Assembly: GCA_017557525.1 (NCBI GenBank)
Contig: JAFYYN010000047.1
Span: forward strand, 1 to 55,734
Direction: 5' to 3'
Length of the DNA stretch: 55,734 nucleotides
From: Lachnospiraceae bacterium
GTDB lineage: Bacteria > Bacillota > Clostridia > Lachnospirales > Lachnospiraceae
The notes below the pieces were generated by a model that did not search any database, had not been told where the DNA came from, and saw only the letters and a program-made list of their open reading frames with translations. Of this stretch, positions 38,689 to 53,648 are shown piece by piece. The translations under genes were made by a program, and so were the position numbers. Position 1 is the first letter of the stretch, and each line of letters begins with the position of its first letter.

Positions 38689-39183
38689 ATGGAGATAGAA
38701 CACAAATACCTGATAAAGGAGCTCCCCACAGATCTTGACAAGTACAAAAAGAAAGAGATAGAGCAGGGATATCTTAACCGTTCTCCGGTCTTAAGGATCA
38801 GGAAAAGCAATGATAAGTACATATTCACCTATAAATCAAAAAGAGAGATAAGCGAGGAGGGTGCTCCCATATGCAACGATGAGATAGAGGCACCGCTCAC
38901 AAAGGAGGCTTACCTTCACCTTAAATCCAAGGTGGATGGAAACCTTATCGTAAAGACAAGATACATTATTCCCTATGATTATGACGGTAAAACCTACAAA
39001 ATAGAGCTTGACGTATTTCACGGAAAGCTTGAAGGCCTCGTATTTGCCGAGGTAGAGTTTGAGTCCGTTGAGGATGCTAACGCCTTTAAGGGGCCGGAGT
39101 GGTTTGGCAAAGAGGTTTCATCTGACAGAAGGTATAGAAACGGATTCCTTACCGAACAGGAAAATCTTGACTTTTTAAAGTAA
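38689..39183 (+). CDS. CYTH domain protein (triphosphate tunnel metalloenzyme)
   Basis: A 164-residue single CYTH domain. MEIEHKYLI is the diagnostic ExExK motif at the very N-terminus; LRIRKSNDKYIFTYKSKR, KTRYIIPYDYDGKTYKIELDVFHG and FAEVEFES supply the basic and acidic tunnel residues. Family members hydrolyse tripolyphosphate or thiamine triphosphate, or act as adenylate cyclases; a short bacterial form like this is most often an inorganic triphosphatase. The in-frame GTG at 38674 would add five residues before the ExExK motif and lacks a better ribosome site, so ATG 38689 is preferred. The last codons contain the -35 of the asnA promoter. Confidence 0.85.
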   Translation: MEIEHKYLIKELPTDLDKYKKKEIEQGYLNRSPVLRIRKSNDKYIFTYKSKREISEEGAPICNDEIEAPLTKEAYLHLKSKVDGNLIVKTRYIIPYDYDGKTYKIELDVFHGKLEGLVFAEVEFESVEDANAFKGPEWFGKEVSSDRRYRNGFLTEQENLDFLK

Positions 39184-39195
39184 AAGTGGCATAAT
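39167..39195 (+). promoter_or_regulatory. asnA promoter
   Basis: TTGACT (39167-39172, inside the end of the CYTH gene), 17-bp spacer, CATAAT (39190-39195). Confidence 0.6.
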
Positions 39196-39238
39196 CTATT
39201 TTGTTTTTAGATTTTTAAGAGAAAGGATGCTTATATCT

Positions 39239-40249
39239 ATGTCAAAACTTACTATCCCAAGCGGCTATGTTTCGGCACTCAGCATTAAAGAAACACAGCA
39301 TGCTATCAAGTACATTAAGGATCATTTTGAGCGTCAGCTCGCTAAGCAGCTGAACCTGACCAGAGTCAGTGCACCTTTATTTGTAAGACCTAATTCAGGC
39401 TTAAATGATAATCTTAATGGAGTTGAGCGTCCTGTTACTTTTGGTATAAAGGATCTGGGCGAGGAGCAGGTAGAAGTAGTTCATTCACTTGCCAAGTGGA
39501 AGAGAATGGCTCTTAAGGATTACGGCTTTGTATACGGTGAGGGACTTTACACCGATATGACAGCTATCAGAAGAGACGAGGAGCTTGATAATTTCCATTC
39601 GCTCTATGTAGATCAGTGGGACTGGGAAAAGGTCATCTTAAAGGACGAGAGAAATGTTGAAACCTTAAAGGGCGTTGTAAGATGCATTTACCAGGCTTTA
39701 AAGGATACGGAGCATTATATTGCCGACAAGTATTCTTATATAGAAGAGATCCTTCCTGAGGATATTTCGTTTGTTACTACCCAGGAGCTTGAGAATATGT
39801 GGCCCGATGCTACTCCTAAGGAGAGAGAGGACAATATCTGCCGCATGAAGAAAGCCGTATTTGTTATGCAGATCGGAAAGAAGCTCTTAGGCGGCGAAAA
39901 GCATGACGGACGTGCTCCCGACTATGATGACTGGGAGCTCAACGGAGATATCCTTGTTTACTATCCGGTTATGGACTGTGCACTTGAGATTTCATCAATG
40001 GGTATCAGAGTTGATGAGGATTCACTTGCAAGCCAGTTAAAAATAGCAGGCTGCGAGGAAAGAGCAGAGCTTCCTTTCCAGAAGGCAATACTTAACAAAG
40101 AGCTGCCATACACAATCGGCGGCGGTATCGGTCAGTCAAGAATGTGTATGTATTTCTTAAGGAAGGCACATATCGGAGAGGTTCATTCATCCGTATGGCC
40201 CGAGGAAATGAAGGACGCAGCATTAAAAGCAGGTATCCAGATACTTTAA
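39239..40249 (+). CDS. asnA: Aspartate-ammonia ligase (asparagine synthetase A)
   Basis: A 336-residue AsnA, which makes asparagine from aspartate, ammonia and ATP. ERQLAKQLNLTRVSAPLFVR, DNLNGVERPV, VVHSLAKWKR, GLYTDMTAIRRDEELDNFHSLYVDQWDWEK and TIGGGIGQSRMCM are the class II synthetase-like blocks of the family; the length agrees with the 330-residue E. coli protein. ATG 39239 has AAAGGA 11 bp upstream; the in-frame ATG at 39227 overlaps that site and is less likely. It is monocistronic, between its own promoter and a strong terminator. Together with the type III glutamine synthetase, it points to growth on free ammonia. Confidence 0.96.
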   Translation: MSKLTIPSGYVSALSIKETQHAIKYIKDHFERQLAKQLNLTRVSAPLFVRPNSGLNDNLNGVERPVTFGIKDLGEEQVEVVHSLAKWKRMALKDYGFVYGEGLYTDMTAIRRDEELDNFHSLYVDQWDWEKVILKDERNVETLKGVVRCIYQALKDTEHYIADKYSYIEEILPEDISFVTTQELENMWPDATPKEREDNICRMKKAVFVMQIGKKLLGGEKHDGRAPDYDDWELNGDILVYYPVMDCALEISSMGIRVDEDSLASQLKIAGCEERAELPFQKAILNKELPYTIGGGIGQSRMCMYFLRKAHIGEVHSSVWPEEMKDAALKAGIQIL

Positions 40250-40393: not shown

Positions 40394-40422
40394 TTTACAA
40401 AAAATGAATTATAGTGTATACT
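40394..40422 (+). promoter_or_regulatory. Promoter of the Tad-like operon
   Basis: TTTACA (40394-40399), 17-bp spacer, TATACT (40417-40422), nearly identical in flanks to the topB promoter. The leader to 40528 is about 100 nt; a TTTAAG/CTTAAA hairpin abuts the AAAGGAGG ribosome site and could affect its access. Confidence 0.65.
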
Positions 40423-40527
40423 TTGTTTATCTTAAGAGATTCGGTAACTCTTTAAAAACTTAATTCTTTGATATTTCATCATAATTTCCACAATTTAAGT
40501 TTAGCTTAAAGGAGGTTTTGCACCCTG

Positions 40528-41274
40528 ATGGTAAGAAGAGTCAGGAAAATGTCCGGAGGGCTTAAAGGAAAACTGGCTGTGGCTCTTTTTGTCGTAGCTT
40601 TATTAAGTGTTGCCTTTGGTCTGCTTTTATGGATGTTCATTAAGAAAAATACAAAAGAAAAACAATATATTGCGAAAATCAGCGAGCTCGAGGAGCTTTT
40701 AAGCAAAAATAGCGAACCGGCGGTTGATACATCTACACCTGAGTTTATTCCGGTAAAGGCAGAAAAAGTCCGCGAAACCGAGCTGGGCTTTATTTCCGTT
40801 GCTTCAAATATATCAGAGGGGGACTATACGGATATCAGGATACGCTATATTGACGGGTCTGACTATATAATAGCTTCACATAAACAGATAACATCAATTG
40901 ACAGGGAAAAAGGTGGGATAGTGATCCCTGTGTCAGAAGAAGAGCTTTTGCTGCTTAATTCGGCGGAAACCGATAAGGATCTGTTTGCAGGTACTAAGGT
41001 TTATCTTACAAGGTATGATCCTTTAGATGATAACATATCGGAGGTTAACTATTCACCTTCCTTTATCATTAAAGATCTTATAGAAATAAACCCCAATATT
41101 AATGAAATATCAGCAAGTTTTAATGCTAAAGAAAGAGAAACTATAGAGGAGAAACTCTCAAGGTTTAAGGGTGATTACGGCGACAGTATCAGAGATACTA
41201 TAGAGGAAACAGAGGACTACAAAGGTCCGGTTTCGGGGTTACCTAAAGAATACGGAGGGAGCATATGGGATTAA
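40528..41274 (+). CDS. CpaB-like (SAF-type) membrane-anchored protein, first gene of Tad-like operon
   Basis: A 248-residue protein with one N-terminal membrane helix (about residues 14-36) and a short coiled coil. The outer part, TELGFISVASNISEGDYTDIRIRYIDGSDYIIASHKQI...VIPVSEEELLLLNSA, has the beta-rich layout and the 'xxVasnIxeGdyvDIRi' phrase of CpaB/RcpC proteins, which brace the Tad pilus channel. No secretin is needed in a monoderm. AAAGGAGG lies 12 bp before the ATG, a little far; a second ATG at 40549 is the alternative start. The stop overlaps the next start by 10 bp. The call rests on position and pattern, not on a database match. Confidence 0.6.
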   Translation: MVRRVRKMSGGLKGKLAVALFVVALLSVAFGLLLWMFIKKNTKEKQYIAKISELEELLSKNSEPAVDTSTPEFIPVKAEKVRETELGFISVASNISEGDYTDIRIRYIDGSDYIIASHKQITSIDREKGGIVIPVSEEELLLLNSAETDKDLFAGTKVYLTRYDPLDDNISEVNYSPSFIIKDLIEINPNINEISASFNAKERETIEEKLSRFKGDYGDSIRDTIEETEDYKGPVSGLPKEYGGSIWD

Positions 41275-41891
41275 AGAGCATAAGCTTTCTTGGGGGAGGC
41301 TATGAGGATATAGTGCTGTATCTCTCGTATTGCTTAAAGCAGCTTGGAGTAAGCATTTTAATAAAGGACAAAACCGGGGAGCGTGTTCTATGCTCTTACA
41401 TCCCGGAAATTAAGGGTATTGACCCTGAAAATGAAGTACTTGATATAGGTGGTGCTCATTATACATCGGGCCCAGTAACAGGAGAGTATGATATTGTTTT
41501 CGAGTTGTTAGACTATAAGGGTAAACCGGAAAAGGAAACTTTTCTTATAATTGTTACCGATGAGCACAGGAGGCACGAAGAAGCACTGTTAAACAGCGGC
41601 ATTGAAAAAGGGGATGTACTGATCATCAGAAATTATACAGGTGCCATTAAAAGACAGTATGATGAGCTTGTAAAAAGGATGGGGTATGGGGAGATATATG
41701 CAATCCCGTTTTCAGAGAAGGATTTAAGAGCGGAATATCTTACGCAGTACCAAAGGAAAAAAGGGTTTGGCGGTTTGTCAAATGAGCTTGAAGAAGTGAT
41801 AAAGCAGGTCTTTTTCAGTATAGTGTCCGATTATCCTGTAAAAGAAATAAAAAATGCATTTAAAAAAGGGAAAAGGGGAAGTAAAAAGTGA
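41265..41891 (+). CDS. Pseudo-ATPase with MinD/CpaE-like fold (no P-loop)
   Basis: A 208-residue cytoplasmic protein that I do not recognise by name. The strand order looks like a MinD/CpaE domain: ISFLGGGYEDIVLYLSYCLKQLGVSILIKD stands where the P-loop and the 'nLA..La..G..vllvD' helix would be; YDIVFELLD, FLIIVTDEHRRHEEALL and DVLIIRNYTG resemble later strands; a basic tail ends it. The P-loop is replaced by GGGYED, so ATP binding is unlikely. It overlaps its upstream neighbour by 10 bp and the following CpaE-like gene by 4 bp (GTGA), so the three are made together. A partner or scaffold for the next protein is the simplest reading. Confidence 0.6.
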   Translation: MGLKSISFLGGGYEDIVLYLSYCLKQLGVSILIKDKTGERVLCSYIPEIKGIDPENEVLDIGGAHYTSGPVTGEYDIVFELLDYKGKPEKETFLIIVTDEHRRHEEALLNSGIEKGDVLIIRNYTGAIKRQYDELVKRMGYGEIYAIPFSEKDLRAEYLTQYQRKKGFGGLSNELEEVIKQVFFSIVSDYPVKEIKNAFKKGKRGSKK

Positions 41892-42700
41892 AGATAGCAT
41901 TCTGGAGCCCACTGCATGGGACTGGAGCATCATCAGGCCTGCTGGCTGTGGCGGTCGCATTATCAATATTGGATTCTAAAAAGATAGTGGTCTCACAGAC
42001 TCACTATAATCTGAATAATCTTGAAAGACCGCTATTAGGGAGTATCGGGAACGGGGATTTTTTCAGGGATACCGGGGTGGACGCACTGCTTAGGTTTTTT
42101 AAATCAGGAAATATTACAGAAGAGCATATAGAAAACTGCTCGATAAAGATGAGTGAAACGCTGTATCTCCTTGCAGGTACTAAAACAACCAACAGGGAGG
42201 GCTTTGAGAGCAGCATGCATAAGGGGATGCTTTTACATATTTTTTCGTGCCTGGAAAAATACTTTGATATGGTGCTCGTTGATACAAATTCCGGAAATAA
42301 TGAGCTTTCAATGAGGGTGGTAGAGGAATGTGACGCTGTGGTTGTCTCTTTAAGGCAGAACAGGGATATGCTTGACAGCTTTTTTGAAAGCGGTCTTTTT
42401 GAAGATAAACGAATTTTTTATCTGTTTCCGGATTTTGATCCGGAGAGCAGATACAGCATGCATAATTTAAGAACGCTGTATAAGAAAATGAATTCGGGTA
42501 ATTCATCGTTTCTGCCTCATAATACCGGTTATATGGATGCCATATGTGATGAAAAGGTACTGAAATTTATTTCGTCAAATATCGATGCAGATAAAACGGT
42601 GCAGGATTATGCTTTCTTTTGTTCTTTAAGGAAAACTACGTTAATGATTACGGAATTTCTTAAAATCAGGCTTTTAGACAAAACACAGGGAGAGGTTTAA
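41888..42700 (+). CDS. CpaE/MinD-like protein with deviant Walker A
   Basis: A 270-residue SIMIBI-fold protein, GTG start with AGGGGAAG upstream. The N-terminal segment AFWSPLHGTGASSGLLAVAVALSIL replaces the KGGxGKT loop by HGTGASSG, lacking both signature lysines; DMVLVDTNSGNNELSMRVVEECDAVVVSLRQNRDMLD has the switch II-like Asp and following strand of the family. TadZ/CpaE proteins localise Tad machines at the cell surface, and some lack ATPase activity. Its position before cpaF matches the order of Tad loci. The stop (TAA) shares its last base with the ATG of the CpaF gene. Confidence 0.72.
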   Translation: MKIAFWSPLHGTGASSGLLAVAVALSILDSKKIVVSQTHYNLNNLERPLLGSIGNGDFFRDTGVDALLRFFKSGNITEEHIENCSIKMSETLYLLAGTKTTNREGFESSMHKGMLLHIFSCLEKYFDMVLVDTNSGNNELSMRVVEECDAVVVSLRQNRDMLDSFFESGLFEDKRIFYLFPDFDPESRYSMHNLRTLYKKMNSGNSSFLPHNTGYMDAICDEKVLKFISSNIDADKTVQDYAFFCSLRKTTLMITEFLKIRLLDKTQGEV

Positions 42701-44493
42701 TGATCAATATCATCATTGCGATAATACTGCTGATCCTCCCGGTGATAATAATCCTCCTGTTTGACAGGGAGAGCTCCGCTAAAAAGACCCGTGTTTTAAG
42801 GGATGAGGCATATTTCAGGCCTGCAAATATCTTTGAGGAATGCAGAAGGATCATAGACGAGGTTTTAAATAGCGATTATTCAGAGCTTGGGTTAAACAGG
42901 GCTGAGACAGTTAAAAGAGAAAAACAGCAGAACAGGCTTAAAAATGCCATAAGGGAGGCAGGACTTGGAGATGCGGGAGACAGGGAATACCTTAAGGAAT
43001 ATTTAAAGGAGCTCCTGCAGACCCGGATAGGTATAAATGAAACCAATATCTGTAAATGCATACCCTTTGACAACCCTTCCTTTATGACTGCACAGGACAA
43101 ATTTGAATATATGTATGTCCTGTATTCTGAGAAATACGGTCCCGCATCGTTTGTGCGTATGGTTGAGGACCACTTATGGAATGAGCCTAAACAAAATGAA
43201 AAAGGGACGGCGTACTGTATTACCGAAGAGGATATAGAGGATGCTTTTTACAATTACGGACTGTATGGCAACTACAATGATAAGCTTGATATGCTGGTAC
43301 AGCGCTGTTATGAAACGCTGTATGGGCACGGCTGTGCAGATATACTGATCATGGACGAGTCGGTGGATGGTGTATCCGGAGGTGTGGGTGGAAAAAGCAG
43401 GGTTGAATATAATTATATGGATGTCTTAAGTGATACTAATACTGAGGAAGCAAGTATGAATTATGATACCCTGTACTGTGTCCTTCACGGTAAGCTGATC
43501 AGGATGAAATTCCTGTCTTTCGGAAGTGAGGAAAATCTGGAGCGGGTCGTAAAGAATATTTACAGGTATAATATCAGGACATCACTCTCAAGAAAGAATC
43601 CTGTGATCCACGGGACACTTAAAAACGGATCAAGAATAGTTGCAGCCCGACCTCCGGTTTCTGACGGCTGGACTTTTTACTTAAGGAAATTCAAATCCTC
43701 AAATGCAAAGGAAATAGAATCCCTGCTGGTCCATAAAAACAGCGGACAGGTAATAAACTTTTTAAAACTCATCACCATGGGCGAAATGAACTACTGTATC
43801 TCAGGTCCTATGGGAGGCGGAAAGACTACGCTTTTAAAATCCCTGGTAGGCTTTATGAATCCGGGCTATACAATCAGAGTGGCAGAAAGCTCCTTTGAGC
43901 TTAACTTAAACAATGTATATCCTGAAAGGGACATACATATGATGCAGGAGAGAGGCGAGTTTTCCATATACGATATTATAACGGGCACAAAGAAAATGGA
44001 CACCGATATCCTGATAGTGGGCGAGGTTAATGAGCCTAAGATTGCAGGCGCATATGTTCAGGTTGCCCAGTCAGGTTCGAGGATGGCGGTTACAACGCTG
44101 CATCATGAGACTACTGAAAAGCTGATAGAGTATTTAAGAAATGCGCTTGTTTCAGAGTTTGGCATCAGTGATGTTGGCATTGCCGAAAAACAGGTAGTAG
44201 ATATACTGAACTTTGATATACATATGGTTCATGATGTAGAGGGAAGGTTTTATATAGAAAGGATAACGGAGATCATACCTTATGAGGAGACAAGATATCC
44301 TGAAAAGTTTAGTGAAGCTGCCAGGGAGTTCTTTGTGCGCAGCACTGACAGAAAGCAGTACCGTCTGAATAACATATTCGAGTTTGACAGAGCGGAGGAA
44401 GTATACAGGAAATGCGGTGAAATATCTGAGTATTCAAGATCTCGTCTTGCCCTTAAGCTTGGGGAAGAAAAGGTAAAGGAGTTAACAGGATAA
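42700..44493 (+). CDS. CpaF/TadA-family secretion ATPase with N-terminal membrane helix
   Basis: A 597-residue ATPase powering Tad pilus assembly or type IV-like secretion. Walker A is GPMGGGKTT (about residue 369); Walker B region TDILIVGEVNEPKIAGAYVQVAQSG and the His box TTLHHETTEK match the CpaF/VirB11 class. Unusually it begins with a hydrophobic helix, IIIAIILLILPVIIILLF, that would tie it to the membrane; most CpaF proteins are soluble and about 450 residues long. The N-terminal domain of about 330 residues is also larger than usual. AGGGAGAGG precedes the ATG. Confidence 0.88.
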   Translation: MINIIIAIILLILPVIIILLFDRESSAKKTRVLRDEAYFRPANIFEECRRIIDEVLNSDYSELGLNRAETVKREKQQNRLKNAIREAGLGDAGDREYLKEYLKELLQTRIGINETNICKCIPFDNPSFMTAQDKFEYMYVLYSEKYGPASFVRMVEDHLWNEPKQNEKGTAYCITEEDIEDAFYNYGLYGNYNDKLDMLVQRCYETLYGHGCADILIMDESVDGVSGGVGGKSRVEYNYMDVLSDTNTEEASMNYDTLYCVLHGKLIRMKFLSFGSEENLERVVKNIYRYNIRTSLSRKNPVIHGTLKNGSRIVAARPPVSDGWTFYLRKFKSSNAKEIESLLVHKNSGQVINFLKLITMGEMNYCISGPMGGGKTTLLKSLVGFMNPGYTIRVAESSFELNLNNVYPERDIHMMQERGEFSIYDIITGTKKMDTDILIVGEVNEPKIAGAYVQVAQSGSRMAVTTLHHETTEKLIEYLRNALVSEFGISDVGIAEKQVVDILNFDIHMVHDVEGRFYIERITEIIPYEETRYPEKFSEAAREFFVRSTDRKQYRLNNIFEFDRAEEVYRKCGEISEYSRSRLALKLGEEKVKELTG

Positions 44494-44512
44494 AAGTGAA
44501 AGGGGGAAAGCT

Positions 44513-46450
44513 TTGAGTCACAAAGATAAGGAGCAGGGCCTTTTTGTCAGGAAACGGCTTACTCCTAAAGATTTAAAAGTTGGTCTGTATGATGTATTAG
44601 AGCATTTTAAGCCGCTTATCCCGTTTTTAAACAGGCTGCTTAAGTCATACCGCCTGTATTACCCATGGGATTCAAAGGAATGTGCAGGTCTTGCGGTTAC
44701 ATGTATTTTAAAGATTTACGGACTTAGCGCTATAGTTTTCTTAATCATATTTGGAACGAGTCCGTCTCTGTTTTCGGTTATACTTTCCGGGTATCTCATT
44801 TATGTATTTTCTTCCGAGATAATCAATTCTTCGCGTGTGAAATTAGAGATACAGTTCTTAAAAGCATTTGAAAATGTTTTAGGCAGTATAAGGCATCATT
44901 ATTATAAAAGCGGTTCGATAAGAAACGCTCTTGCGGATGCGGAAAATGACGCAGATCCGATCATAAAGGGGCATATAAAGGAAATGCTGAAAGTCCTTTC
45001 TGCGCCTGACTCGAGGCTTGCAGTAAATGAATATGTTAACTCAGGTTATCACAAGTATCTCAAGCTGTTTATCACACTTGCGAGGCTTGTGGATGAAAAT
45101 GGTGATGAAACCGAAAACGGTTGCTCGGTGTTCTTAAATTCATGCATGAGGATAAAATATGATGTCGAGGAGGACCTACGCTTTATTTCGGAAAGAAAGC
45201 ATCGTTTTTCAGGACTCGTACTGACCGCAACGCTTCCTGCCATATCCATTCCTTATATTGCTATGTGGGGCGTTTCCACAATACCGAGTCTTAATATGTT
45301 TTACTACGGGTATGTGGGGTCGGGAGTTAAGCTTCTGCTTATTTTTATATCACTGTTAAGCTTTAAAGCTCTTAACAGGCTTAAACGCGGAGACCCGTAT
45401 GAGGAGAGAAGCTTTTGGGCAGCAGAGAAAATCTCCAGGATAACGGTTTTTGACAGGATAACAGCCTTTTTGATGAGGAAACATAAGAAAAAGGTGCGCA
45501 CATATGAAGAAACGATAAGGAGATTGTGTGAGAGATATTCTGTAAAAAACTTTTATGTTAAGAAGGTGATGTTTTTTATAGTGTTTTTCTTTATAACTCT
45601 TGTTACACTGATTTTTGGGCACCTTGAATCAAGAAAAATATATAAAAATGATACATCAACAATAGAGGATATGCTCTCGGTCACGGATACAAGACAGCTT
45701 GCAGCATTAAAAAGGCTTATACCCGAGCTTACGGCATATTATTGTGAAACAGGGCAGGAGCCATCCACTGAGCTGCTAAAGGGGATACTTCTTGAGGACA
45801 GGGATATAAGGCTTTCGACTGTCGTGGAAAGTGCGGCAGAAGAAATAAGAAAAAGGATTGAAGGGTACAGATCCGAGGGCTTTGGTTATAAGGATATCAT
45901 TCTCTGTTTCATTTTGGCCTTTATAGCATATCAGATTCCCGGGGCAGCGCTTGCATTTAGAAAGGCACTTATAGAGAGCCGTATGCAGGATGAGGTAATG
46001 CAGTTTCAAAGCATTATACATATGCTTAAAAATATTCCCGGGATAACGGCAGTTTCGCTGTTAGAGGAAATGGAGCTTTTTTCTCAGATTTTTAAGCCTG
46101 CGATCAGGAAATGTATAAACGAATATAATATTTCCGATGAGAAAGCCTTAAGAAAAATGTACGAAACAGAAACGTACGCACCTTTCAGAAGGATAACGGA
46201 CTGTTTTCTTATGGCTGACGAGCTGGGGTTAGAGGATGCCTTTGAGGAGATATCTGCAGAAATTGAGAATTTTACGGAAAACAGAAAGCTTGAAAGAAAG
46301 ATACTGCTTGATTCGGAGGGAATGCTCGGGGCGGTAATATCAGTGCTGCCGGGAGGCATAATCCTTTTTGGGTATCTGCTCCTTCCGTTTATGGTCAGGT
46401 CAATGCAGATATTTAACGAGTATCAGACAGGGATAAGTATGATGGGGTGA
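44513..46450 (+). CDS. Fused TadB-TadC-like inner membrane platform protein
   Basis: A 645-residue protein with TTG start and an AGGGGG site 6 bp upstream. Two T2SSF-like halves can be seen: the first with helices near 60-100 and 225-285 flanking a cytosolic domain (EIQFLKAFENVLGSIRHHYYKSGSIRNAL), the second with helices near 345-365, 460-480 and 605-635 flanking RMQDEVMQFQSIIHMLKNIPGITAVSLLEEM. In most Tad loci TadB and TadC are two genes of about 300 residues each; here they seem to be one chain, with the halves joined by a basic and acidic linker. It should be the membrane platform on which CpaF acts. Confidence 0.75.
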   Translation: MSHKDKEQGLFVRKRLTPKDLKVGLYDVLEHFKPLIPFLNRLLKSYRLYYPWDSKECAGLAVTCILKIYGLSAIVFLIIFGTSPSLFSVILSGYLIYVFSSEIINSSRVKLEIQFLKAFENVLGSIRHHYYKSGSIRNALADAENDADPIIKGHIKEMLKVLSAPDSRLAVNEYVNSGYHKYLKLFITLARLVDENGDETENGCSVFLNSCMRIKYDVEEDLRFISERKHRFSGLVLTATLPAISIPYIAMWGVSTIPSLNMFYYGYVGSGVKLLLIFISLLSFKALNRLKRGDPYEERSFWAAEKISRITVFDRITAFLMRKHKKKVRTYEETIRRLCERYSVKNFYVKKVMFFIVFFFITLVTLIFGHLESRKIYKNDTSTIEDMLSVTDTRQLAALKRLIPELTAYYCETGQEPSTELLKGILLEDRDIRLSTVVESAAEEIRKRIEGYRSEGFGYKDIILCFILAFIAYQIPGAALAFRKALIESRMQDEVMQFQSIIHMLKNIPGITAVSLLEEMELFSQIFKPAIRKCINEYNISDEKALRKMYETETYAPFRRITDCFLMADELGLEDAFEEISAEIENFTENRKLERKILLDSEGMLGAVISVLPGGIILFGYLLLPFMVRSMQIFNEYQTGISMMG

Positions 46451-46453
46451 AAA

Positions 46454-46885
46454 ATGCAAAGAAACTGTATAGAAATAGCTCCGAGGGCGTTGCTTTTAGC
46501 AGCCGGAGTGGTACTAACCGTAGTATTGATATCGCTAATGATAACCCAGTTTAAGTCTGCGCAGGAGATGGTAAATATTTCCTCGGAAATGATCAGCGAA
46601 CGCACGGAAAGTATGAAAAACGGTGAGTTAGAGGAAATGGACGGAATGGAGGTAAGCGGTTCGGATGTCATCAATGTATGCAAAAAGTATCTTGGGAAAG
46701 GGATAGATATTACTTTAAAAAACGGTGACAACTCTAAAAAGTATTCTGATGAGGCTTCTCTTTCAAAACTAAAGGATTATGAAAGCAGTGAATATGTAAA
46801 GCCTTCAACAAAATGGAAATGTAAGACAGTAAAAAACAAAAACGGTATTTTAACAGATATTATTTTTACAAGAAAGGATGATTGA
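46454..46885 (+). CDS. Pilin-like protein A
   Basis: A 143-residue protein with one N-terminal helix (PRALLLAAGVVLTVVLISLMI) after a short basic head, then a hydrophilic domain. EEMDGMEVSGSDVINVCKKYL and the ending KCKTVKNKNGILTDIIFTRKDD correspond to YDGLDVSGSKVISVINEMC and KVYKNSNGLVVNIEFTQH in the next gene, so the two are diverged paralogues. No class III prepilin (G/E...) or Flp motif is obvious; the helix could remain as an anchor or be processed by the M50 protease encoded downstream. It starts 3 bp after the platform gene stop. Confidence 0.65.
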   Translation: MQRNCIEIAPRALLLAAGVVLTVVLISLMITQFKSAQEMVNISSEMISERTESMKNGELEEMDGMEVSGSDVINVCKKYLGKGIDITLKNGDNSKKYSDEASLSKLKDYESSEYVKPSTKWKCKTVKNKNGILTDIIFTRKDD

Positions 46886-46886
46886 T

Positions 46887-47387
46887 ATGTATAGCAGAAA
46901 CAAAGTGGAAATTGGTGTAAAGGGACTAGTACTCGCTGTGACCGTGATAATTGCCGTGGTGCTTTCGGCTCTGGCGTTATATATGGCGAACTCATCTAAG
47001 AGTACAATTAACGGAGGTACGACCCAGTATACGCAGCTGATGAGCGATTATTCGGAGATCAGCGCCACTATGTATGACGGATTGGATGTTTCCGGTTCAA
47101 AGGTAATCTCGGTAATTAATGAGATGTGCCAGACGGATTATGTATCGGTTACGGTCATTACTAAAGAGGACACGACCGGAACTAATTACAGTAACCCGTC
47201 AAACAAGACGGCTGTAACAACTGTTGACAATAAGACTATTACCCCCTCGGGAAATCAGTATGCAGGTTCAACCCAGGAATCTACAATAACCAATAAATCC
47301 CATATAAATGAAAATGCGTCATACAGGGGTAAGGTATATAAAAACAGTAACGGGCTTGTGGTTAATATTGAGTTTACACAGCATTAA
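46887..47387 (+). CDS. Pilin-like protein B
   Basis: A 166-residue paralogue of the preceding protein, with an N-terminal head MYSRNKVEIGVKG, one helix (LVLAVTVIIAVVLSALALYMA) and a Ser/Thr/Asn-rich outer domain. It contains the shared YDGLDVSGSKVISV motif near residue 50. A Thr/Ser-rich tract (about 95-140) looks like a surface-exposed, possibly glycosylated segment. I choose ATG 46887 (AAAGG 9 bp upstream) over the in-frame ATG at 46878, which overlaps the ribosome site. Its outer domain is longer than that of its partner, so it may be the major subunit. Confidence 0.65.
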   Translation: MYSRNKVEIGVKGLVLAVTVIIAVVLSALALYMANSSKSTINGGTTQYTQLMSDYSEISATMYDGLDVSGSKVISVINEMCQTDYVSVTVITKEDTTGTNYSNPSNKTAVTTVDNKTITPSGNQYAGSTQESTITNKSHINENASYRGKVYKNSNGLVVNIEFTQH

Positions 47388-47438
47388 TTAGGGCAAAGAG
47401 ATGTATTTAAAGGTAAAGGATTTTAGAAGGGAAACAAC

Positions 47439-47897
47439 ATGCTAGGCAGATTTACGGCATGCCTGCTCTGCATCCTTGTAACAGTGCTTTTTTCGCTCAA
47501 GCAGATGGGTGTAACTGAAGCAGAGAGAAATGAAAATCATATATGCTTTGCCCTTGAAAGCTTTATGTGTGATATGGAAAAAAGAGCAGTGATTACCTTG
47601 GAAGATATTAATGAGTTGCAAAAGAATATCTCTTTAGCAGGAATGGTCTGTGACCTTGAAATTGAAATAGGTACAGTGCTTTACGGAAGGGAAGAAAGTA
47701 CGATAGAGCTAGAGTATACCGGAGAAATACTGAAAGAGCTGAGCATACTGGGTAAAGAGATTGATCTTAAAAACCGTATGATAACTGTACGTGTGATACC
47801 TAAAACAGAATGTCTTGGAGCGGAGCTGGCAAATATGCTCTGGAAAACATATATGTCGCAAAAAGAATTTGTAACGGGGGGCTTTATACATGGATAG
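47439..47897 (+). CDS. Small membrane-anchored pseudopilin-like protein
   Basis: A 152-residue protein with an N-terminal hydrophobic helix (RFTACLLCILVTVLFSLKQM), then a helical stretch (EAERNENHICFALESFMCDMEKRAVITLEDINELQKN) and a beta-rich domain. The layout (short head, helix, small globular domain) is that of a minor pilin or TadE-like protein. No family is recognised. Three cysteines are found outside the helix. GAAGGGAAA precedes the ATG. The stop lies 8 bp inside the next small gene. Confidence 0.6.
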   Translation: MLGRFTACLLCILVTVLFSLKQMGVTEAERNENHICFALESFMCDMEKRAVITLEDINELQKNISLAGMVCDLEIEIGTVLYGREESTIELEYTGEILKELSILGKEIDLKNRMITVRVIPKTECLGAELANMLWKTYMSQKEFVTGGFIHG

Positions 47898-48051
47898 TAT
47901 TTTAGAGGCTGTGGAATTAAGCCTTGCAGCATTGATATTCTGTATTGCGGTATATTTCTTTATCACGCTTGCAGGAGATATTGACAGATATACCGAGGAA
48001 GCATTTGATTACGGAACGGAGATAGCGGATTGTTCATATTCGGAATTGTGA
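47890..48051 (+). CDS. 53-residue single-helix protein (Flp-like or pseudopilin)
   Basis: ATG at 47890 with GGGGGG 8 bp upstream, TGA at 48049-48051. The protein MDSILEAVELSLAALIFCIAVYFFITL... has one membrane helix and a short acidic tail (DIDRYTEEAFDYGTEIADCSYSEL). It overlaps the previous gene by 8 bp and the M50 gene by up to 22 bp. Flp pilins are of this size, but here the helix lacks the Gly-(Leu/Thr)-Glu-Tyr motif. It could also supply a missing first helix for the following protease. Confidence 0.6.
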   Translation: MDSILEAVELSLAALIFCIAVYFFITLAGDIDRYTEEAFDYGTEIADCSYSEL

Positions 48052-48713
48052 TGCATGAGCTGGGACATCTTATAGGTGGTGCTCTGGGAGGATATAGGCT
48101 TTATTATATCGAGGTTTTCGGGTTGTTTTTGATAAAAGGTGATAACGGGTATAAAGTAGGCAGGAGCAAAGGGGTTCCTGTAGGTCAGTGCATTATGTAC
48201 CATGAAGATTTAAATAAAAACCCGGTGTCACTTATAATCGGAGGGCTTGCTGCAAATTTTCTGCTGGTTGTGTCTGGGATTATCATGTTTATAGTCACTG
48301 ATGGAATCGTTATAAGGACGGTTTCCCTGATAGTATCTATATCAAATCTTTCGCTTGGGCTTATGAACATATTTGGCAGTACTTCATCTGATGGTATGAC
48401 ACTAAAGGAAGTGTGGGGCTCAAAAACTGCTTCAAGGGTGTATAACGAAATAATGGTCCTCTATTTTTTACTTGGGGATCCCCAAAACAGGTTATCTGTT
48501 TTTCCTGAATTGGAGGAAGCATATAACCTTGAGCAGATGCAGGCGGAAAACGAAAGTAAGATATTAAGAAAAATAGAAGAGCAGATAGCAGATGATCTAA
48601 AGAAAACAGATAATTGCGGTAGTCACAGGGGCAGCTTGCGGGAAGAACTGGAAATGCTTTTTGATGCGTTAAAGGAGCAGGAGAAAAATGGAGTCTTTAG
48701 GAAAGGTATTTGA
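48030..48713 (+). CDS. M50 family (site-2-protease-like) membrane metalloprotease
   Basis: A 227-residue protein with HELGHLIGGALGGYR near the N-terminus (HExxH zinc site), SLIIGGLAANFLLVVSG (the conserved G-x-x-x-N loop and helix) and NLSLGLMNIFGSTSSDGMTLKEV (an N...DG motif that supplies the third zinc ligand), so all three M50 elements are present. The C-terminal 80 residues are a charged coiled coil. I used TTG 48030, which has GGAG 8 bp upstream; ATG 48051 overlaps the previous stop as TGATG. Either way the first helix is very short. No A24 prepilin peptidase is present in the operon. Confidence 0.8.
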   Translation: MFIFGIVMHELGHLIGGALGGYRLYYIEVFGLFLIKGDNGYKVGRSKGVPVGQCIMYHEDLNKNPVSLIIGGLAANFLLVVSGIIMFIVTDGIVIRTVSLIVSISNLSLGLMNIFGSTSSDGMTLKEVWGSKTASRVYNEIMVLYFLLGDPQNRLSVFPELEEAYNLEQMQAENESKILRKIEEQIADDLKKTDNCGSHRGSLREELEMLFDALKEQEKNGVFRKGI

Positions 48714-49122
48714 TTTCCTTATACTGCTGACAGTGCTTTTTATATTTCCTGTTAACTGGGCATTCGGCAGGGCGGAAACAGTGGGAGATTATTCTTTGGA
48801 GAATAAGGTTGAGGAATTCTTGGATGCTACCATGACATTGAGGCAGATAGACGGTAAGGAATTAAATAGCTTTATTTTTGAATTGGATGCTCTGTTTAAG
48901 AATTATAAAGCAGAAATAACTGTAAAACGTGGGGTTGCAGAGGCGGAGGCGGATGGTATGGGATACCGGGCAGTCAGTTACAGCAGCGTCATTGAAATGC
49001 AGGCAATAGAGGATGATATTGAAAACAAGGGCTGTTTTGCACTATACAAAAATGATATTTTGGTAATAAAAGTGTCGGATAAAAACGGGGTATTTTTGTC
49101 GGGAGCCAGGCTGATCATATGA
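48688..49122 (+). CDS. Small membrane-anchored protein, pseudopilin-like
   Basis: A 144-residue protein: N-terminal helix (VFDFLILLTVLFIFPVNWAFG), helical stem, then a beta-rich domain (FKNYKAEITVKRGVAEAEADGMGYRAVSY, FALYKNDILVIKVSDKNGVFLSGARLII). It resembles the other short anchored proteins here in plan but not in detectable sequence. CAGGAG precedes the ATG, which lies within the end of the M50 gene; its stop overlaps the following start by 4 bp. No family name can be given. Confidence 0.6.
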   Translation: MESLGKVFDFLILLTVLFIFPVNWAFGRAETVGDYSLENKVEEFLDATMTLRQIDGKELNSFIFELDALFKNYKAEITVKRGVAEAEADGMGYRAVSYSSVIEMQAIEDDIENKGCFALYKNDILVIKVSDKNGVFLSGARLII

Positions 49123-49739
49123 GGATTTATCATTTTACGATCATATTTGTGATATTTGCACTTTCTGTGGTTATCATCAAGGATAGTGAGCTTGAAAGCA
49201 GGGTAGCAGAGGAAAGAGAAAAACTTGAGTACAGAAAGGTCATCGAAAAAGCAACGGAAGCTGCTGCATGGGAGCTTAGAGCGGCAGGTCTGTATTTTGA
49301 CGATGAGACAGGCAAAAGAACAATAGACGCTTTTTATTATTCGCTATATGCAGCCTTAGGGATAATGGGAAATGCTTATGAAAGAGATGCGATAAGGGAA
49401 AAGTTTCCATCCTTTACCGTTTTCGTAAATGACGGTTATTACATTTATGATATGGTATGGAAATATGATGGGACAAATGAAAAAAGAGCTTATGTGAGGT
49501 CCGAAAAACTGCCATATGATAAACCTGAAGATAGCAGGACAGGCTTTATGTGCTTTTGCGAAAACAGTTACTATTTCTCAGCCATGATTTCGGAGGGGGC
49601 AGTTTATATAGTTGATACTTTAGGCACATATCATGAGGAAGGCTGCAGCTTTATAGGTGAGACAGCACACATAGTATTTTCAAAAGAAGGATGCGCTATG
49701 CTCGGGGCGCACCCATGCAGGGAGTGTATTGACAGGTAA
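49119..49739 (+). CDS. Membrane-anchored Cys-containing protein, pseudopilin-like
   Basis: A 206-residue protein. A short head and helix (YHFTIIFVIFALSVVII) precede a charged helix (ESRVAEEREKLEYRKVIEKATEAAAWELRAAG), a mixed domain, and a C-terminal section with six cysteines, including MCFC, EEGCSF, EGCAML and HPCREC. These could form disulfides or a metal site outside the cell. The N-terminal plan is that of TadE/TadF-type minor pilins. The family is not recognised. It is the last gene of the overlapping run; the following gap of 138 bp has no terminator, and the two large secreted proteins follow. Confidence 0.6.
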   Translation: MRIYHFTIIFVIFALSVVIIKDSELESRVAEEREKLEYRKVIEKATEAAAWELRAAGLYFDDETGKRTIDAFYYSLYAALGIMGNAYERDAIREKFPSFTVFVNDGYYIYDMVWKYDGTNEKRAYVRSEKLPYDKPEDSRTGFMCFCENSYYFSAMISEGAVYIVDTLGTYHEEGCSFIGETAHIVFSKEGCAMLGAHPCRECIDR

Positions 49740-49877
49740 AATACGCCGGACGAATATTAAATATTTTAAGAAAAATATAGATAATTATGAATAAAGGGGA
49801 GTAAAAATAAGGATATGTAAAACAGGGTATAAAAATCTAAAAATCATCGGGTTAGAAAGGATTAAAAAGGTCGCGAT

Positions 49878-51323
49878 ATGCAATATCTTAGGAGAACTCT
49901 GGGAATACTTCTTATAAGTGTTATTATAACATCTGTATTACCTGTGCAGACTAAAATAAATGCAGCTAAGAGTGCTGAAAAAGGTTTCGATTTCGTTTTT
50001 AGCATTGTGGAGGCGTTGAAAACAAACGGAAGGATTTCTGCAGATGACAAGAAGGTGCCAGAAAAAACTGTTGAAAAATACATTAAGAATTACAAGCTCT
50101 CTAAAGAAAAGGCTGTTGATCTTTTAATAGCAGTAAATATCGGACTGATACAGGATAAAGTAAAGAATTATAAGAAAAGCATTACTCTGGCAAAGGCGCT
50201 GGGTCTCGTTTCAAAAGCGGACGAATTGATGTACGGAAAAAAGATTGACCCTGACAGCGTGCAATTCTGTATAAAGAACAGGATAAAGGATATAGGAAAG
50301 GTCAAAAAATCCGAAAGATACGGAGAAGCAGAGGGATACTTAAGAGGCTTTATAAAGGGAAGTGCTGCAGAGTATTCTCATACGAGGAGCCTGAAAGGAA
50401 ATAAAAAACTTACAAAATCCCAGGCGGAAAAGCTTTTAAAGCTCCTAAATAATGAAAATGAAAGGTATCTTTTATCTCCTGATCATCAGATCATACGGAC
50501 AAAGAAGCTTCCGAGGAATGCTGAAGTTTATGCGTATATTATAGATTCATTCCCTAACAGCTATTATGAAACCGGTTTTAATGGGATGAAAAACAAAAAT
50601 TTCTTTGATACGGGAGTGGGACTTGGAGCGGACACATTAGAGGAACGAATGAAGAGAACAAGCTTTACTTTCGTATTTCCATATGAAATCGAAAGGTTTA
50701 ACTCTCTTGAATATCCGAGTGATGCATTTTCATATTCCAATAATGTTTTTACCTTCACATACAGAAATAACATTGTTCCGAATGAACTGGTCTTAAGCTC
50801 GGAGGAATATTACAGGTATGCTTTAAATATTAATTACAGGACAATTGAGAATGACACTGAGTGGCAGCAGGTTATGGGAAAATACCTGTCAAAAAGCGAG
50901 ATAGAGGATTATATAAAGCACTGCAAGGAGAATAAGACGATCATTGAATGTGACCTTGTTGCCGCAGACAGGTCGTCGGTATACTGGTATAATGGTGAAT
51001 ATCAGTGCAAGGTATATGCTCATATGAGGATCATATCGGATATCCCTACCGAAATGGGCAAGACGATGGGTACGGATCAGGAAACATATGGATATCTCTA
51101 TCCGGTTAAAAAGGGCTATGAACCCGGCACCTGCTTTACAAGAAGTGTTTTGGGTCCGTTATATCTAGATTATCAAGTAGGAGAATGGCTGGACTATTAT
51201 GTAAATACAAGCGGGTGCGCAGACTTTTACGGGAGCCTTTGCTGCTCGAACACGGAAAGAGGTATAATGATTGACTATTCCGGTCTTTATCCTTGGCTGG
51301 TAAAATTTCCGTTTTTGAACTAG
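49878..51323 (+). CDS. Large secreted protein of the Tad-like locus (unknown)
   Basis: A 481-residue exported protein: signal peptide MQYLRRTLGILLISVIITSVLPVQTKINAA, then a helical, lysine-rich half (to about residue 200) with two repeats of a helix pair, and a second half rich in Tyr and Asn (NAEVYAYIIDSFPNSYYETGFNG, DTEWQQVMGKYLSKSEIEDYIKHCK). Four cysteines cluster near the C-terminus (TSGCADFYGSLCC). No catalytic motif or sorting signal is recognised. AAAAAGG lies 8 bp upstream. It follows the small anchored proteins on the same strand without a visible terminator, so it may be a substrate or a tip component of the machine. Confidence 0.65.
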   Translation: MQYLRRTLGILLISVIITSVLPVQTKINAAKSAEKGFDFVFSIVEALKTNGRISADDKKVPEKTVEKYIKNYKLSKEKAVDLLIAVNIGLIQDKVKNYKKSITLAKALGLVSKADELMYGKKIDPDSVQFCIKNRIKDIGKVKKSERYGEAEGYLRGFIKGSAAEYSHTRSLKGNKKLTKSQAEKLLKLLNNENERYLLSPDHQIIRTKKLPRNAEVYAYIIDSFPNSYYETGFNGMKNKNFFDTGVGLGADTLEERMKRTSFTFVFPYEIERFNSLEYPSDAFSYSNNVFTFTYRNNIVPNELVLSSEEYYRYALNINYRTIENDTEWQQVMGKYLSKSEIEDYIKHCKENKTIIECDLVAADRSSVYWYNGEYQCKVYAHMRIISDIPTEMGKTMGTDQETYGYLYPVKKGYEPGTCFTRSVLGPLYLDYQVGEWLDYYVNTSGCADFYGSLCCSNTERGIMIDYSGLYPWLVKFPFLN

Positions 51324-51347
51324 ATGCTAAAGAAAATATAGAAAAAT

Positions 51348-53564
51348 ATGAAAGAAAGAATACAGAACAGAATACAAAAATCAATAATTGGAAGATGTGT
51401 TGCCTTGCTATGCATTCTCTCATTATTTACAGGAATGTTATACATAAGAGAGGTACCGGTCAAGGCTGATTCAGAGATGATTTCATATAATCTGGGTGCA
51501 AATGCAGATATAAGCTATAAGAAAAGTGAGAATAAGGTTTATTATAACAGGTTACACTATTCTTCCGGCAGTGGTATCAAATATTATACCCAGTATTTTG
51601 TGATTTCATTAAAAGAGGCAGCAACTGAGGATGACCTGAGTATGCTTTCATCAAAATCCGGTGAATACAGCAAAATTATCCTGGTAAGTAGTGACGGGTC
51701 CGGGAAAGGTGAAAATGAGTCAGACAAAAACGGAGAATTTTACTGGTATGATTCAGAAATAAATGATGAGGGTTATGTACAGACAACCTATGTTATGGAT
51801 GGGAGCATATTCGAAAATCTATTGCTGGAATCGGGAGTAGAGGGGCAAAGCCAGATCTATATTCATCATGTATTTGCCGTAAACGGGGGAAGTGAGAGTG
51901 ATGACTGGCATAAAAAGTACAATGTTAGTAATAATGTCCCTTATTATAAATATTCTGATCTGATGAAGATAGGCTGGAATAACACGACGGCAACACACGA
52001 TTCTCAGAAAAGCTGTCTGAATATACCGGTGCCTTTTGAAAGACAGGTGGAAAAGGTAGCGGATATAAGGGTGGAAGACCCTTATGAAATAACGCAGAGT
52101 CCGACATATTATGAAGAAGAGATTTTTTATGTGACAAAACAACCGGAGCAGGGGAACGGTACTCCGACTCCGGAACCTTCAAACACACCATCATTTATTA
52201 TCTCGATAATTCCTCAGCTGATCCCGACCATTGTCATTCCATGGCTAGACCCGGTGGTCACACCTACACCGGAGCCTACACCAATATACGGACCAGCTCC
52301 AATATACGGACCAACACCGGTATCGAGCCCGACGCCGGTACCTTCACCAGCTATGTATCCAACTCCGGAGCCCACACCAGAGTCGACACCGGAGCCGACA
52401 CCGGAGCCTACACCCAGAGGGGATATAGAGCTGCATATCATTACGGATAATCTGAAATATGTGCAGCAACTGGATGCAGATGCGGGTAATGCACATGTTG
52501 TATTAGGAAGTGAAAAGACAGAGTCTTTAAGGATATCTGTAGATAATTTTGATAATGACATACGTATTTCATTTCCTTTTGATATCTATACAGGGGATGG
52601 AAACAGATTATCTGCTAATGCATGGAACATTTTATATCCGTCTTACCGGGTACCTGATAATACAAGTGTTGGAAAGTATACAGTAAGGGCAGCAGCGGTA
52701 ACGGATACAGGGAGCTTTGCCGCATATGATGAAGCGGTACTTGAGGTTTCAGGGAAACTGTATGGTTTAAGGTTAACAAATATCAATTCTGATGCACCGG
52801 ACTGGAAAGGTGTCTTTGAATCAGGAGTTTATTCGTGTTTCGCAGGATTAAGGGATGAACTGGGCGTAGACAGAGGAGATGGTCTTAAAACGGTACTTCC
52901 GCTTATAGATGGTGACAGCCCAAATGTTTCAACCGGCGGTATGCTTAAAAGCGGATATACCTGGACATTCGAAGTACGAACCTGTGGTAACGTCATGGCG
53001 GAGACGGGAGCACATTTAGTTGTTGCTCCAAGTTTCTACTATGTACCGGAAAGCCTTGATGATAGGCAGGCGGTAAGGCTGTATGGCATAGATTTAAAGG
53101 AAATGAACAGTACAGTTGAGGCTTTACAGGTTAGAAAAGATGGTAACGAAACAGTTTGGAGTTTTGAATACAGTCTACCGAATGAATGGTTCTGTACCGG
53201 TTATGAGAGTGATGTTGACAGTATGATAGAGAAAAAAGGTGGACTAACCTTTAAGGAAGAGTTCTGGAAGAAAAAAGGATTTCTTGCAGTAAACTTTGAA
53301 ATCGGAGCGTATAATGCTTCCGGAAAACTGATCATGACATACTCCAATACAAAGGACAACATAGCTCAGGGTATGTGTGATATGTGGCATATGGAAGGCA
53401 GTTTAACAAGCAAGAAAGACTATCTTGGCAGAAAGTATCTTTTAGAGGAAGGAGATGTGATACTGCTCAGACTTCCCGGCTCAACATATGACAAAAACGG
53501 TAATCCTTCCCCACCGACGAACGCAAAAGAGGATAAGAGCGTAATATATGGTGGCAACAAATAG
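51348..53564 (+). CDS. Large secreted protein with Pro/Thr/Glu repeat linker (unknown)
   Basis: A 738-residue exported protein: signal peptide KSIIGRCVALLCILSLFTGMLYI after a basic head, an N-terminal beta domain of about 220 residues (MISYNLGANADISYKKSENKVYYN...), a linker of TPEPTP, YGPTP and PSPTP units (about residues 268-360) and a C-terminal part with Ig-like strands (SLRISVDNFDNDIRISFPFDIYTGDG, VGKYTVRAAAVTDTG) and a mixed domain. It starts 25 bp after the previous gene, with a poor ribosome site. No wall-anchor motif is seen. It is the last gene of the locus, and a very strong terminator follows. Confidence 0.65.
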   Translation: MKERIQNRIQKSIIGRCVALLCILSLFTGMLYIREVPVKADSEMISYNLGANADISYKKSENKVYYNRLHYSSGSGIKYYTQYFVISLKEAATEDDLSMLSSKSGEYSKIILVSSDGSGKGENESDKNGEFYWYDSEINDEGYVQTTYVMDGSIFENLLLESGVEGQSQIYIHHVFAVNGGSESDDWHKKYNVSNNVPYYKYSDLMKIGWNNTTATHDSQKSCLNIPVPFERQVEKVADIRVEDPYEITQSPTYYEEEIFYVTKQPEQGNGTPTPEPSNTPSFIISIIPQLIPTIVIPWLDPVVTPTPEPTPIYGPAPIYGPTPVSSPTPVPSPAMYPTPEPTPESTPEPTPEPTPRGDIELHIITDNLKYVQQLDADAGNAHVVLGSEKTESLRISVDNFDNDIRISFPFDIYTGDGNRLSANAWNILYPSYRVPDNTSVGKYTVRAAAVTDTGSFAAYDEAVLEVSGKLYGLRLTNINSDAPDWKGVFESGVYSCFAGLRDELGVDRGDGLKTVLPLIDGDSPNVSTGGMLKSGYTWTFEVRTCGNVMAETGAHLVVAPSFYYVPESLDDRQAVRLYGIDLKEMNSTVEALQVRKDGNETVWSFEYSLPNEWFCTGYESDVDSMIEKKGGLTFKEEFWKKKGFLAVNFEIGAYNASGKLIMTYSNTKDNIAQGMCDMWHMEGSLTSKKDYLGRKYLLEEGDVILLRLPGSTYDKNGNPSPPTNAKEDKSVIYGGNK

Positions 53565-53588
53565 TTTTTAATATTTTGAAAAAAATTC

Positions 53589-53648
53589 TTGCCTTTAGAC
53601 AAAGAAAGTTGTATTATAAACTTTGAATTGTCTGAAGGCAATTTTTTT
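53589..53648 (+). terminator. Strong terminator ending the Tad-like operon
   Basis: TTGCCTTTAGACAA (53589-53602) pairs with TTGTCTGAAGGCAA (53628-53641) with one G-U pair, and AAAGTT/AACTTT extends it, followed by seven T residues. Confidence 0.92.

What the first reader, a model, noticed from the sequence alone, without database searches (positions are those of the whole stretch)
40394..53648. Rewired Tad/Flp-like machine in a single 13-kb transcription unit
Fourteen genes run in one direction, mostly overlapping or within a few bp, from a single promoter to one strong terminator. CpaB-like, two CpaE-fold proteins, CpaF and a TadB-TadC fusion define a Tad-type core, but there is no A24 prepilin peptidase, no classical Flp pilin and no TadG. 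In their place are an M50 protease, paralogous pilin-like proteins, four other small anchored proteins and two large secreted proteins. This combination may be a distinct surface-filament or secretion system of Lachnospiraceae.
Basis: partly seen in the sequence, partly recalled or inferred. Interest (0 to 1): 0.85.

Follow-up and report, generated by a model that had tools for sequence, protein, structure and literature searches.

The report
Divergent Tad-like filament machine
The 14 genes are one real, conserved operon for a pilus-type machine that is related to the known Tad pilus but forms its own branch with its own unnamed subunits, and relatives occur in other families and at least one further class of the same phylum.

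Summary
In detail: fourteen co-directional genes (40528-53564) end at a strong terminator, and four named Lachnospiraceae MAG loci keep the order with small gaps. The ATPase is CpaF-type. Profiles free of canonical Tad sequences find CpaF, and in some loci CpaE, CpaB and TadB, near canonical pilus genes; this genome's own CpaE and TadB were not recovered. Pilin-like and small anchored proteins matched nothing there. 38 system ATPases form one side of a 99/98 branch, apart from 11 Tad-type ATPases. Most of the core recurs in 49 loci, window included, in Clostridia and another class.

Best reading: an unnamed, divergent Tad-type machine that builds a thin filament or pseudopilus through the cell wall.

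The parts
40394..40422 (+). promoter-like site (TTTACA, 17 nt, TATACT)
   Evidence: 10 of 12 consensus matches, but the number of such sites equals that in shuffles
40528..41274 (+). g1, CpaB/RcpC-like single-pass protein with SAF-type domain
   Evidence: family profile A4: FlgA 3frn E 4.3e-6, RcpC 9gzr E 0.017; finds proteins beside A24 genes in three loci, best E 1.8e-9; 38 of 49 loci
41265..41891 (+). g2, probable MinD/ParA-fold protein with degenerate P-loop
   Evidence: 40 of 49 loci; relative in L108 shows an intact P-loop by eye; no Pfam hit; fold is inference
41888..42700 (+). g3, CpaE/TadZ-like MinD/ParA-family protein (GTG start)
   Evidence: AAA_31 in 10 of 25 members, best E 8.9e-5; PDB ParA/MinD, best E 4.2e-4; profile finds CpaE-like proteins beside CpaF in three loci, best E 1.3e-9, but not this genome's own CpaE (E 12); 47 of 49 loci
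42700..44493 (+). g4, CpaF/TadA-type assembly ATPase with N-terminal membrane segment
   Evidence: T2SSE E 6.5e-16; CpaF 8rkd E 5e-15; among NCBIfam models archaellum FlaI scores 57.1 bits, VirB11 54.3, TadA 52.8; motifs and tree
44513..46450 (+). g5, TadB-TadC-like platform fusion (TTG start)
   Evidence: no T2SSF hit in 22 of 22 members; profile finds the protein next to CpaF in three loci, best E 6.7e-6; own TadB only E 0.13; its halves match two separate genes in L124 at 96.6% and 95.4% probability
46454..46885 (+). g6, pilin-like subunit
   Evidence: same family as g7; one hydrophobic segment at residues 12-30
46878..47387 (+). g7, main pilin-like subunit
   Evidence: 91-95% identical in L033, L035, L036; family in 49 of 49 loci, partly by selection; Lys-Gly before the hydrophobic segment, no Glu at +5
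47439..47897 (+). g8, anchored small protein, same family as g11
47890..48051 (+). g9, 53-aa membrane mini-subunit
   Evidence: profile members in 15 loci, 38-149 aa
48030..48713 (+). g10, M50-type membrane metalloprotease (accessory)
   Evidence: HExGH, N and DG invariant in 7 of 7; 7 of 49 loci
48688..49122 (+). g11, anchored small protein
   Evidence: family in 46 of 49 loci
49119..49739 (+). g12, anchored protein with C-terminal Ada-type zinc motif
   Evidence: PF02805 in 4 of 22 members, best E 1.8e-5; PDB Ada E 0.002; family in 43 of 49 loci
49878..51323 (+). g13, secreted protein, probably wall-bound
   Evidence: of four relatives scanned, SLH in L043 (E 1.8e-7) and L112 (E 1.6e-26), Cu_amine_oxidN1 in L124, no family over cut-off in L109; none in the window copy; 15 of 49 loci, perhaps more than one family
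51348..53564 (+). g14, large secreted protein with Pro/Thr-rich linker
   Evidence: of three relatives scanned, DUF5704 in L046 (E 4.7e-55) and L045 (E 2.3e-30), none in L035; none in the window copy; 14 of 49 loci
53589..53648 (+). intrinsic terminator
   Evidence: -24.7 kcal/mol, z -6.12

Best explanation
The operon encodes a divergent type IV filament machine of the Tad/VirB11-ATPase branch. SHOWN by sequence: a CpaF-type ATPase; a platform protein with profile-level kinship to TadB and, through a relative with split genes, to a second platform half; a CpaE-like and a CpaB/RcpC-like protein; and with them a separate family of single-pass pilin-like proteins (g6, g7) and further anchored small proteins (g8/g11, g9, g12). 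INFERRED: the ATPase turns the g5 platform and pulls g7 (g6 and g9 as minor subunits) out of the membrane into a thin helical filament; g2/g3 place the machine in the cell; g1 guides the fibre through the wall; g11 and g12 act as tip or priming subunits; g13 ties the apparatus to the wall and g14 is a surface or tip protein. Subunits are most likely cut after the conserved Lys/Arg-Gly/Ala by an A24 peptidase encoded elsewhere in the genome. Whether the fibre is long and adhesive or a short secretion piston is not decided.
For: Clean profiles, built without canonical Tad sequences, were searched against 746 ORFs of 71 loci around A24, T2SSE and M50 hits. For g4 the first 11 rows (10 distinct genes; L039 and L166 are one gene) are Tad-type CpaF, E 7e-39 to 9e-31; next come a contig-end fragment and, from 6e-12, other ATPases. 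g3, g1 and g5 each found their Tad counterpart in three loci (best E 1.3e-9, 1.8e-9, 6.7e-6). ATPase branch 99/98. In 7 loci fetched after the profiles were made (L179-L184, L186; found by the pilin profile) those profiles find g3, g4, g5, g11 in 7 of 7 and g1, g2, g12 in 6 of 7. In the 150-genome family sample the pilin profile hits 19 genomes: the 18 with g5 hits plus G096, where the machine is also present. Most A2 rows come from those same genomes or were found through them, so only G074 and G115 (2 of 2) and the rarity of pilin hits elsewhere are informative. 48 of 54 aligned pilins, chosen from 99 profile members, have [KR][GA] just before the hydrophobic segment.
Against: No structure of any part. 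The pilin family matches no solved pilin and no Pfam pilin over cut-off. g5 has no T2SSF hit; its N-half against this genome's own TadB reached 33.8% (two negative controls 0.2% and 0.4%). This genome's own CpaE and TadB were not found by the clean profiles (E 12 and 0.13). Among NCBIfam models the archaellum motor scores slightly above TadA for g4. The pilins lack Glu at +5, which matters for assembly in classical type IV pilins (recalled). The tree has long branches and warns of false joins among reference rows. No expression or filament data.
Confidence: 0.75

Rival explanations
1. An ordinary Tad/Flp pilus locus that has merely drifted and lost tadV and flp, not a separate lineage.
For: Machine proteins are recognisably Tad-type at profile level; one relative, L108, keeps an A24 gene and a protein with an FHA-like end (by eye) nearby.
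Against: ATPases form their own branch, 99/98, with different motifs; an ordinary Tad locus sits in the same genome (L039); the pilin, g8/g11 and g12 profiles found nothing in the canonical loci searched.
Confidence: 0.12
2. A short type II secretion-like pseudopilus that pushes g13/g14 or other proteins through the wall, instead of a long adhesive fibre.
For: g13/g14 are secreted and lie next to the machine in some loci; a Gram-positive wall needs no secretin (recalled).
Against: g13 and g14 are absent from most loci (found in 15 and 14 of 49); relatives have up to seven pilin-profile hits (L118), which suggests varied surface fibres.
Confidence: 0.25
3. A DNA-transfer or integrative-element machine (VirB11/T4SS kind).
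For: VirB11 and TrbB models hit g4 (1e-14 and 8.7e-10).
Against: CpaF structures score far better than VirB11-like ones (5e-15 against 4.8e-6); no relaxase or coupling gene was noticed in the ORF maps, though none was searched by profile; the flanks AsnA and an aminotransferase are housekeeping genes and recur beside some relatives.
Confidence: 0.04
4. The M50 protease replaces the prepilin peptidase in the window's part of the tree and trims the longer pilin leader.
For: Leaders (nearest Met) are 10-16 residues in 11 of 11 sampled pilins of M50 loci, but 6-7 in the 41 sampled pilins of other loci apart from L042 (the script scored L108 as 2, its first Met gives 6); M50 catalytic residues are invariant.
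Against: L042, same genus, has two pilins with 12-residue leaders and no M50 in the locus, only an M50 relative on another contig; M50 relatives also occur in genomes with short leaders (G127, G055); the window genome has A24 peptidases; the correlation may be shared descent.
Confidence: 0.12

Closest known systems
Tad/Flp (type IVc) pilus of monoderm bacteria
   Same: CpaF-type ATPase; profile-level kinship of platform, CpaE-like and CpaB-like proteins; operon layout
   Different: Own ATPase branch and motifs (mostly GEVA or GEVNEP in place of GEVR; a double His in the His box), platform in one fused protein, pilins of 127-192 aa without Glu +5, A24 gene nearly always elsewhere
'No Flp_2' tad-like loci of Imam et al. 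2011 (PMC3244431; passages and section 12 read)
   Same: Clostridial tad-like loci with no recognised prepilin motif and with genes of unknown function
   Different: Those are reported to carry tadV, and their tadA is excepted from the statement that their genes are only distantly related to other clostridial tad genes; the loci could not be compared here
Archaeal type IV pili / archaellum
   Same: VirB11-branch ATPase (FlaI model 57.1 bits for g4); weak archaeal pilin hits (PF07790 in 3 of 29 members, best E 0.018)
   Different: No pilin hit reaches a cut-off; a SAF-type protein is present; solved CpaF scores above solved FlaI (5e-15 against 2.2e-7)

Membership tests
Tad/Flp pilus | TadA/CpaF ATPase | tested here: met
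Tad/Flp pilus | ATPase falls inside the canonical Tad clade | tested here: not met
   38 system rows on one side of a 99/98 branch, 11 Tad-type rows outside it; limited sampling, long branches
Tad/Flp pilus | TadB and TadC platform proteins (T2SSF) | tested here: inconclusive
   no T2SSF hit; profile match to the protein next to CpaF in three loci, best E 6.7e-6, own TadB E 0.13; TadC half only by a relative's split gene
Tad/Flp pilus | CpaE/TadZ and CpaB/RcpC | tested here: met
   family profiles; not for the single window proteins and not for this genome's own CpaE
Tad/Flp pilus | small Flp pilin with G/A-x4-E processing motif | tested here: not met
   0 of 54 aligned pilins have Glu at +5; no match in the canonical loci searched. 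The Pfam Flp family was not searched in relatives
Tad/Flp pilus | TadE/TadF/TadG pseudopilins | tested here: not met
   g8/g11 and g12 profiles found no protein in the canonical loci; hhalign to a small TadE-like set (5 rows, 3 distinct) under 7%; by eye g12 and a TadE-like protein of L039 share a Cys-rich end
Tad/Flp pilus | TadV (A24) peptidase in the locus | tested here: not met
   absent here; 1 of 38 loci has one within 10 kb
type IV filament superfamily | ATPase, platform, pilin-like subunit and an A24 peptidase in the cell | tested here: inconclusive
   ATPase met; platform profile-level; subunit only by layout; A24 in genome met
'No Flp_2' tad loci | tadV present, TadA close to other Tad | not testable with these tools
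   named strains not retrieved; text only
type IV filament superfamily | polymer of subunits seen on or in the cell | not testable with these tools
   needs experiment

The most novel reading that the evidence does not exclude
A separate family of bacterial type IV filament, sister to Tad rather than derived from it, with Glu5-less subunits of an unnamed pilin family; in one Lachnospiraceae group an M50 membrane protease in the operon has taken over, or been added to, subunit maturation in place of an A24 prepilin peptidase.
Probability: 0.12. Interest if true: 0.82.

Novelty: new variant of a known kind. Interest (0 to 1): 0.6.

Why it matters
Standard profiles barely see this machine: no T2SSF hit in 22 g5 members, and PF00437 at E 1e-5 missed 9 of 15 known system copies in 12 genomes (my comparison with the loci). 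Yet the pilin profile hits 19 of 150 sampled genomes of the window's family and 39 of 391 of its class (20 of the 22 neighbourhoods then read hold the machine). It would be a surface organelle of common gut and rumen bacteria with no name found in the searches made. Its subunits without Glu +5 make assembly without that residue testable, and the M50-leader link gives a specific claim on prepilin maturation.

Tried and rejected
Genome-wide absence of A24 as proof of peptidase-free assembly: rejected. All 17 other genomes of the family found with the locus have A24, but so do 149 of 150 sampled genomes of the family, so co-occurrence says nothing. In the class sample 30 of 38 genomes with a pilin-profile hit had A24. 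Of the 8 without, G268 has a divergent A24, G362 a fragment at a contig end, and G437 and G490 lack the system (L187, L126); G222, G386, G469 and G504 remain, assemblies of 160-420 contigs, so inconclusive.

M50 as a core part: rejected (7 of 49 loci). Archaeal origin from weak Pilin_N and flagellin hits: none over cut-off, and the wider profile A2 no longer lists flagellin.

The hhalign results for g4-CpaF (100%) and g5-TadB (97.2%) are CIRCULAR: the iterated alignments had taken in those very proteins. The g1 hits there are one-column artefacts. I dropped them and tested again with clean profiles and with A5. The g4 profile had also taken in PilB and ABC ATPases, so the second g4 hit in L044, L048 and L053 is an ABC protein; the system ATPase of each locus was checked in the ORF lists. 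In one search the L053 row was such a wrong pick, replaced. In one search two loci of the system (L188, L196, both G039) were left in the 71 loci by mistake; their hits are not counted. Most 'Tad-type' reference ATPases are so named by score and tree place; only L039's gene neighbourhood was read in full. Phage and defence libraries gave nothing (7 and 8 of the 14 proteins). Nine literature searches listed no paper that I recognised as describing this system; only open-licence PMC papers are covered, and most were seen as listings.

Full report
OBSERVATION. Eleven of 13 junctions are overlaps or gaps of at most 24 bp; the others are 51 and 138 bp. The terminator at about 53589-53648 is strong. 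The promoter is no better than chance sites in the scan, so a single transcript is likely but not shown.

WHERE IT IS FROM. Its closest named relatives are Lachnospiraceae MAGs (g5 44-71% identical), so I take family f1 as Lachnospiraceae, class Clostridia, phylum Bacillota (lineage); this is inference.

CONSERVATION. Four named loci (L033, L035, L036, L037) carry the set in the same order. The crude gene picker missed some genes that later calls recovered; g9 was not recognised in L035, and the g14 slot of L037 holds a large ORF that the g14 profile does not recognise. A g5 search of 150 genomes of the family hit 18, a pilin-profile search of that sample hit 19, the same 18 and G096, which has the machine too; the profile was largely built from those genomes, so this is not independent. 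In the class, 39 of 391 genomes hit at E 1e-3. I read 22 of those neighbourhoods: 19 of 20 (all but L126), and L186 but not L187, hold the system ATPase; 16 remain unread. In the phylum, 7 of 398 hit at 1e-5: own, four genomes of family f108, outside the class, with five loci read (L179-L183), G666 with a smaller related locus (L185, not counted), and G773, not examined. In 49 loci, window included: g5 49, pilin 49, g4 48, g3 47, g8/g11 family 46, g12 43, g2 40, g1 38, g13 15, g14 14, M50 7, and a Ser/Thr kinase-like ORF in 11 (regular expression; Pkinase E 2.4e-45 for L119). g5 and pilin counts are inflated by how loci were chosen; L050 is cut by its contig end, and L124 and L127 lack several parts.

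WHAT THE PARTS ARE. g4 is a CpaF-type ATPase, although NCBIfam's archaellum motor model scores slightly higher than its TadA model. Clean profiles were searched against 746 ORFs of 71 loci: the g4 profile ranks Tad-type CpaF first (11 rows, 10 genes); g3, g1 and g5 each find a counterpart in three loci (best E 1.3e-9, 1.8e-9, 6.7e-6). They do not find this genome's own CpaE (E 12) or TadB (E 0.13). The pilin, g8/g11 and g12 profiles find nothing outside system loci. g1 also matches FlgA and, weakly, RcpC structures. g12 ends in an Ada-type zinc motif. Some g13 relatives carry SLH and some g14 relatives DUF5704.

LINEAGE. In the ATPase tree (65 rows) the 38 system rows are one side of a branch with 99/98 support, in 98% of bootstrap trees. 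Tad-type ATPases, with C. crescentus CpaF and this genome's own, lie outside. Most system ATPases share a changed Walker B end and a double His. Branches are long, so the exact place is open. L050, L115, L116 and L125 are not in the tree (ATPase ORF missing or split), nor are the later loci L179-L186.

PILIN MATURATION. Of 54 aligned pilins (from 99 profile members), 48 have Lys/Arg then Gly/Ala before the hydrophobic segment and 0 have Glu at +5. Short leaders ending in Lys-Gly resemble class I type IV prepilins (recalled). The window genome has two A24 peptidases, one in a type IVa-like locus (L038; gene names by eye) and one in an ordinary Tad locus (L039). So processing in trans is the simplest model. 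Longer leaders (10-16 residues) go with M50 loci, with L042 as a counter-example.

LITERATURE. Imam et al. 2011 (PMC3244431; passages and section 12) report clostridial tad-like loci without any prepilin motif ('no Flp_2'), with tadV. I could not test identity. Denise et al. 2019 (PMC6668835; passages) derive Tad from archaeal Epd-like systems and report many new Tad systems in Clostridia; whether these include this group I cannot say. Makarova et al. 2016 (PMC4858521; passages) treat archaeal systems, and the Bulleidia paper (PMC12786226; passages) a tad operon with tadV.

VERDICT. Real, conserved, unnamed in the libraries searched, and a new variant of the Tad-type filament machine. Function at the cell surface is inferred, not shown.

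Noticed in passing
G000 contig C24, locus L038: A separate type IVa-like pilus locus (PilB-, PilT-, PilC-like and pilin-like ORFs by eye; T2SSE hits) with a full-length A24 peptidase.
   Followed up: partly
G000 contig C69, locus L039: An ordinary Tad/Flp locus (CpaE, CpaF, TadB, Flp-like, TadE-like, A24 and an FHA-like protein; names by eye) in the same genome.
   Followed up: partly
L108, L114, L119-L124, L179, L182, L183: A Ser/Thr kinase-like ORF lies near the upstream end of the operon in 11 of 49 loci (regular expression; Pfam-confirmed only for L119), a hint of control by phosphorylation.
   Followed up: partly
L115, L116, L125 (family f59): The CpaF gene appears as two overlapping ORFs in different frames, and g5 ORFs are short in L115-L117; frameshift, assembly error or programmed event unknown.
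   Followed up: no
L109, L110, L111: g11-family proteins grow to 581, 510 and 1262 aa, perhaps carrying tip or adhesin domains.
   Followed up: no
window 38674-40249; L035-L037, L042, L054: An ORF like window 38674-39183 (CYTH-like by eye, no Pfam hit) and in some loci an AsnA-like gene sit next to the operon in several relatives.
   Followed up: no
G039 contigs C50, C17, C43, C9: One genome of the family carries three loci of the system (L040, L041, L054) and parts of a fourth (L196).
   Followed up: partly
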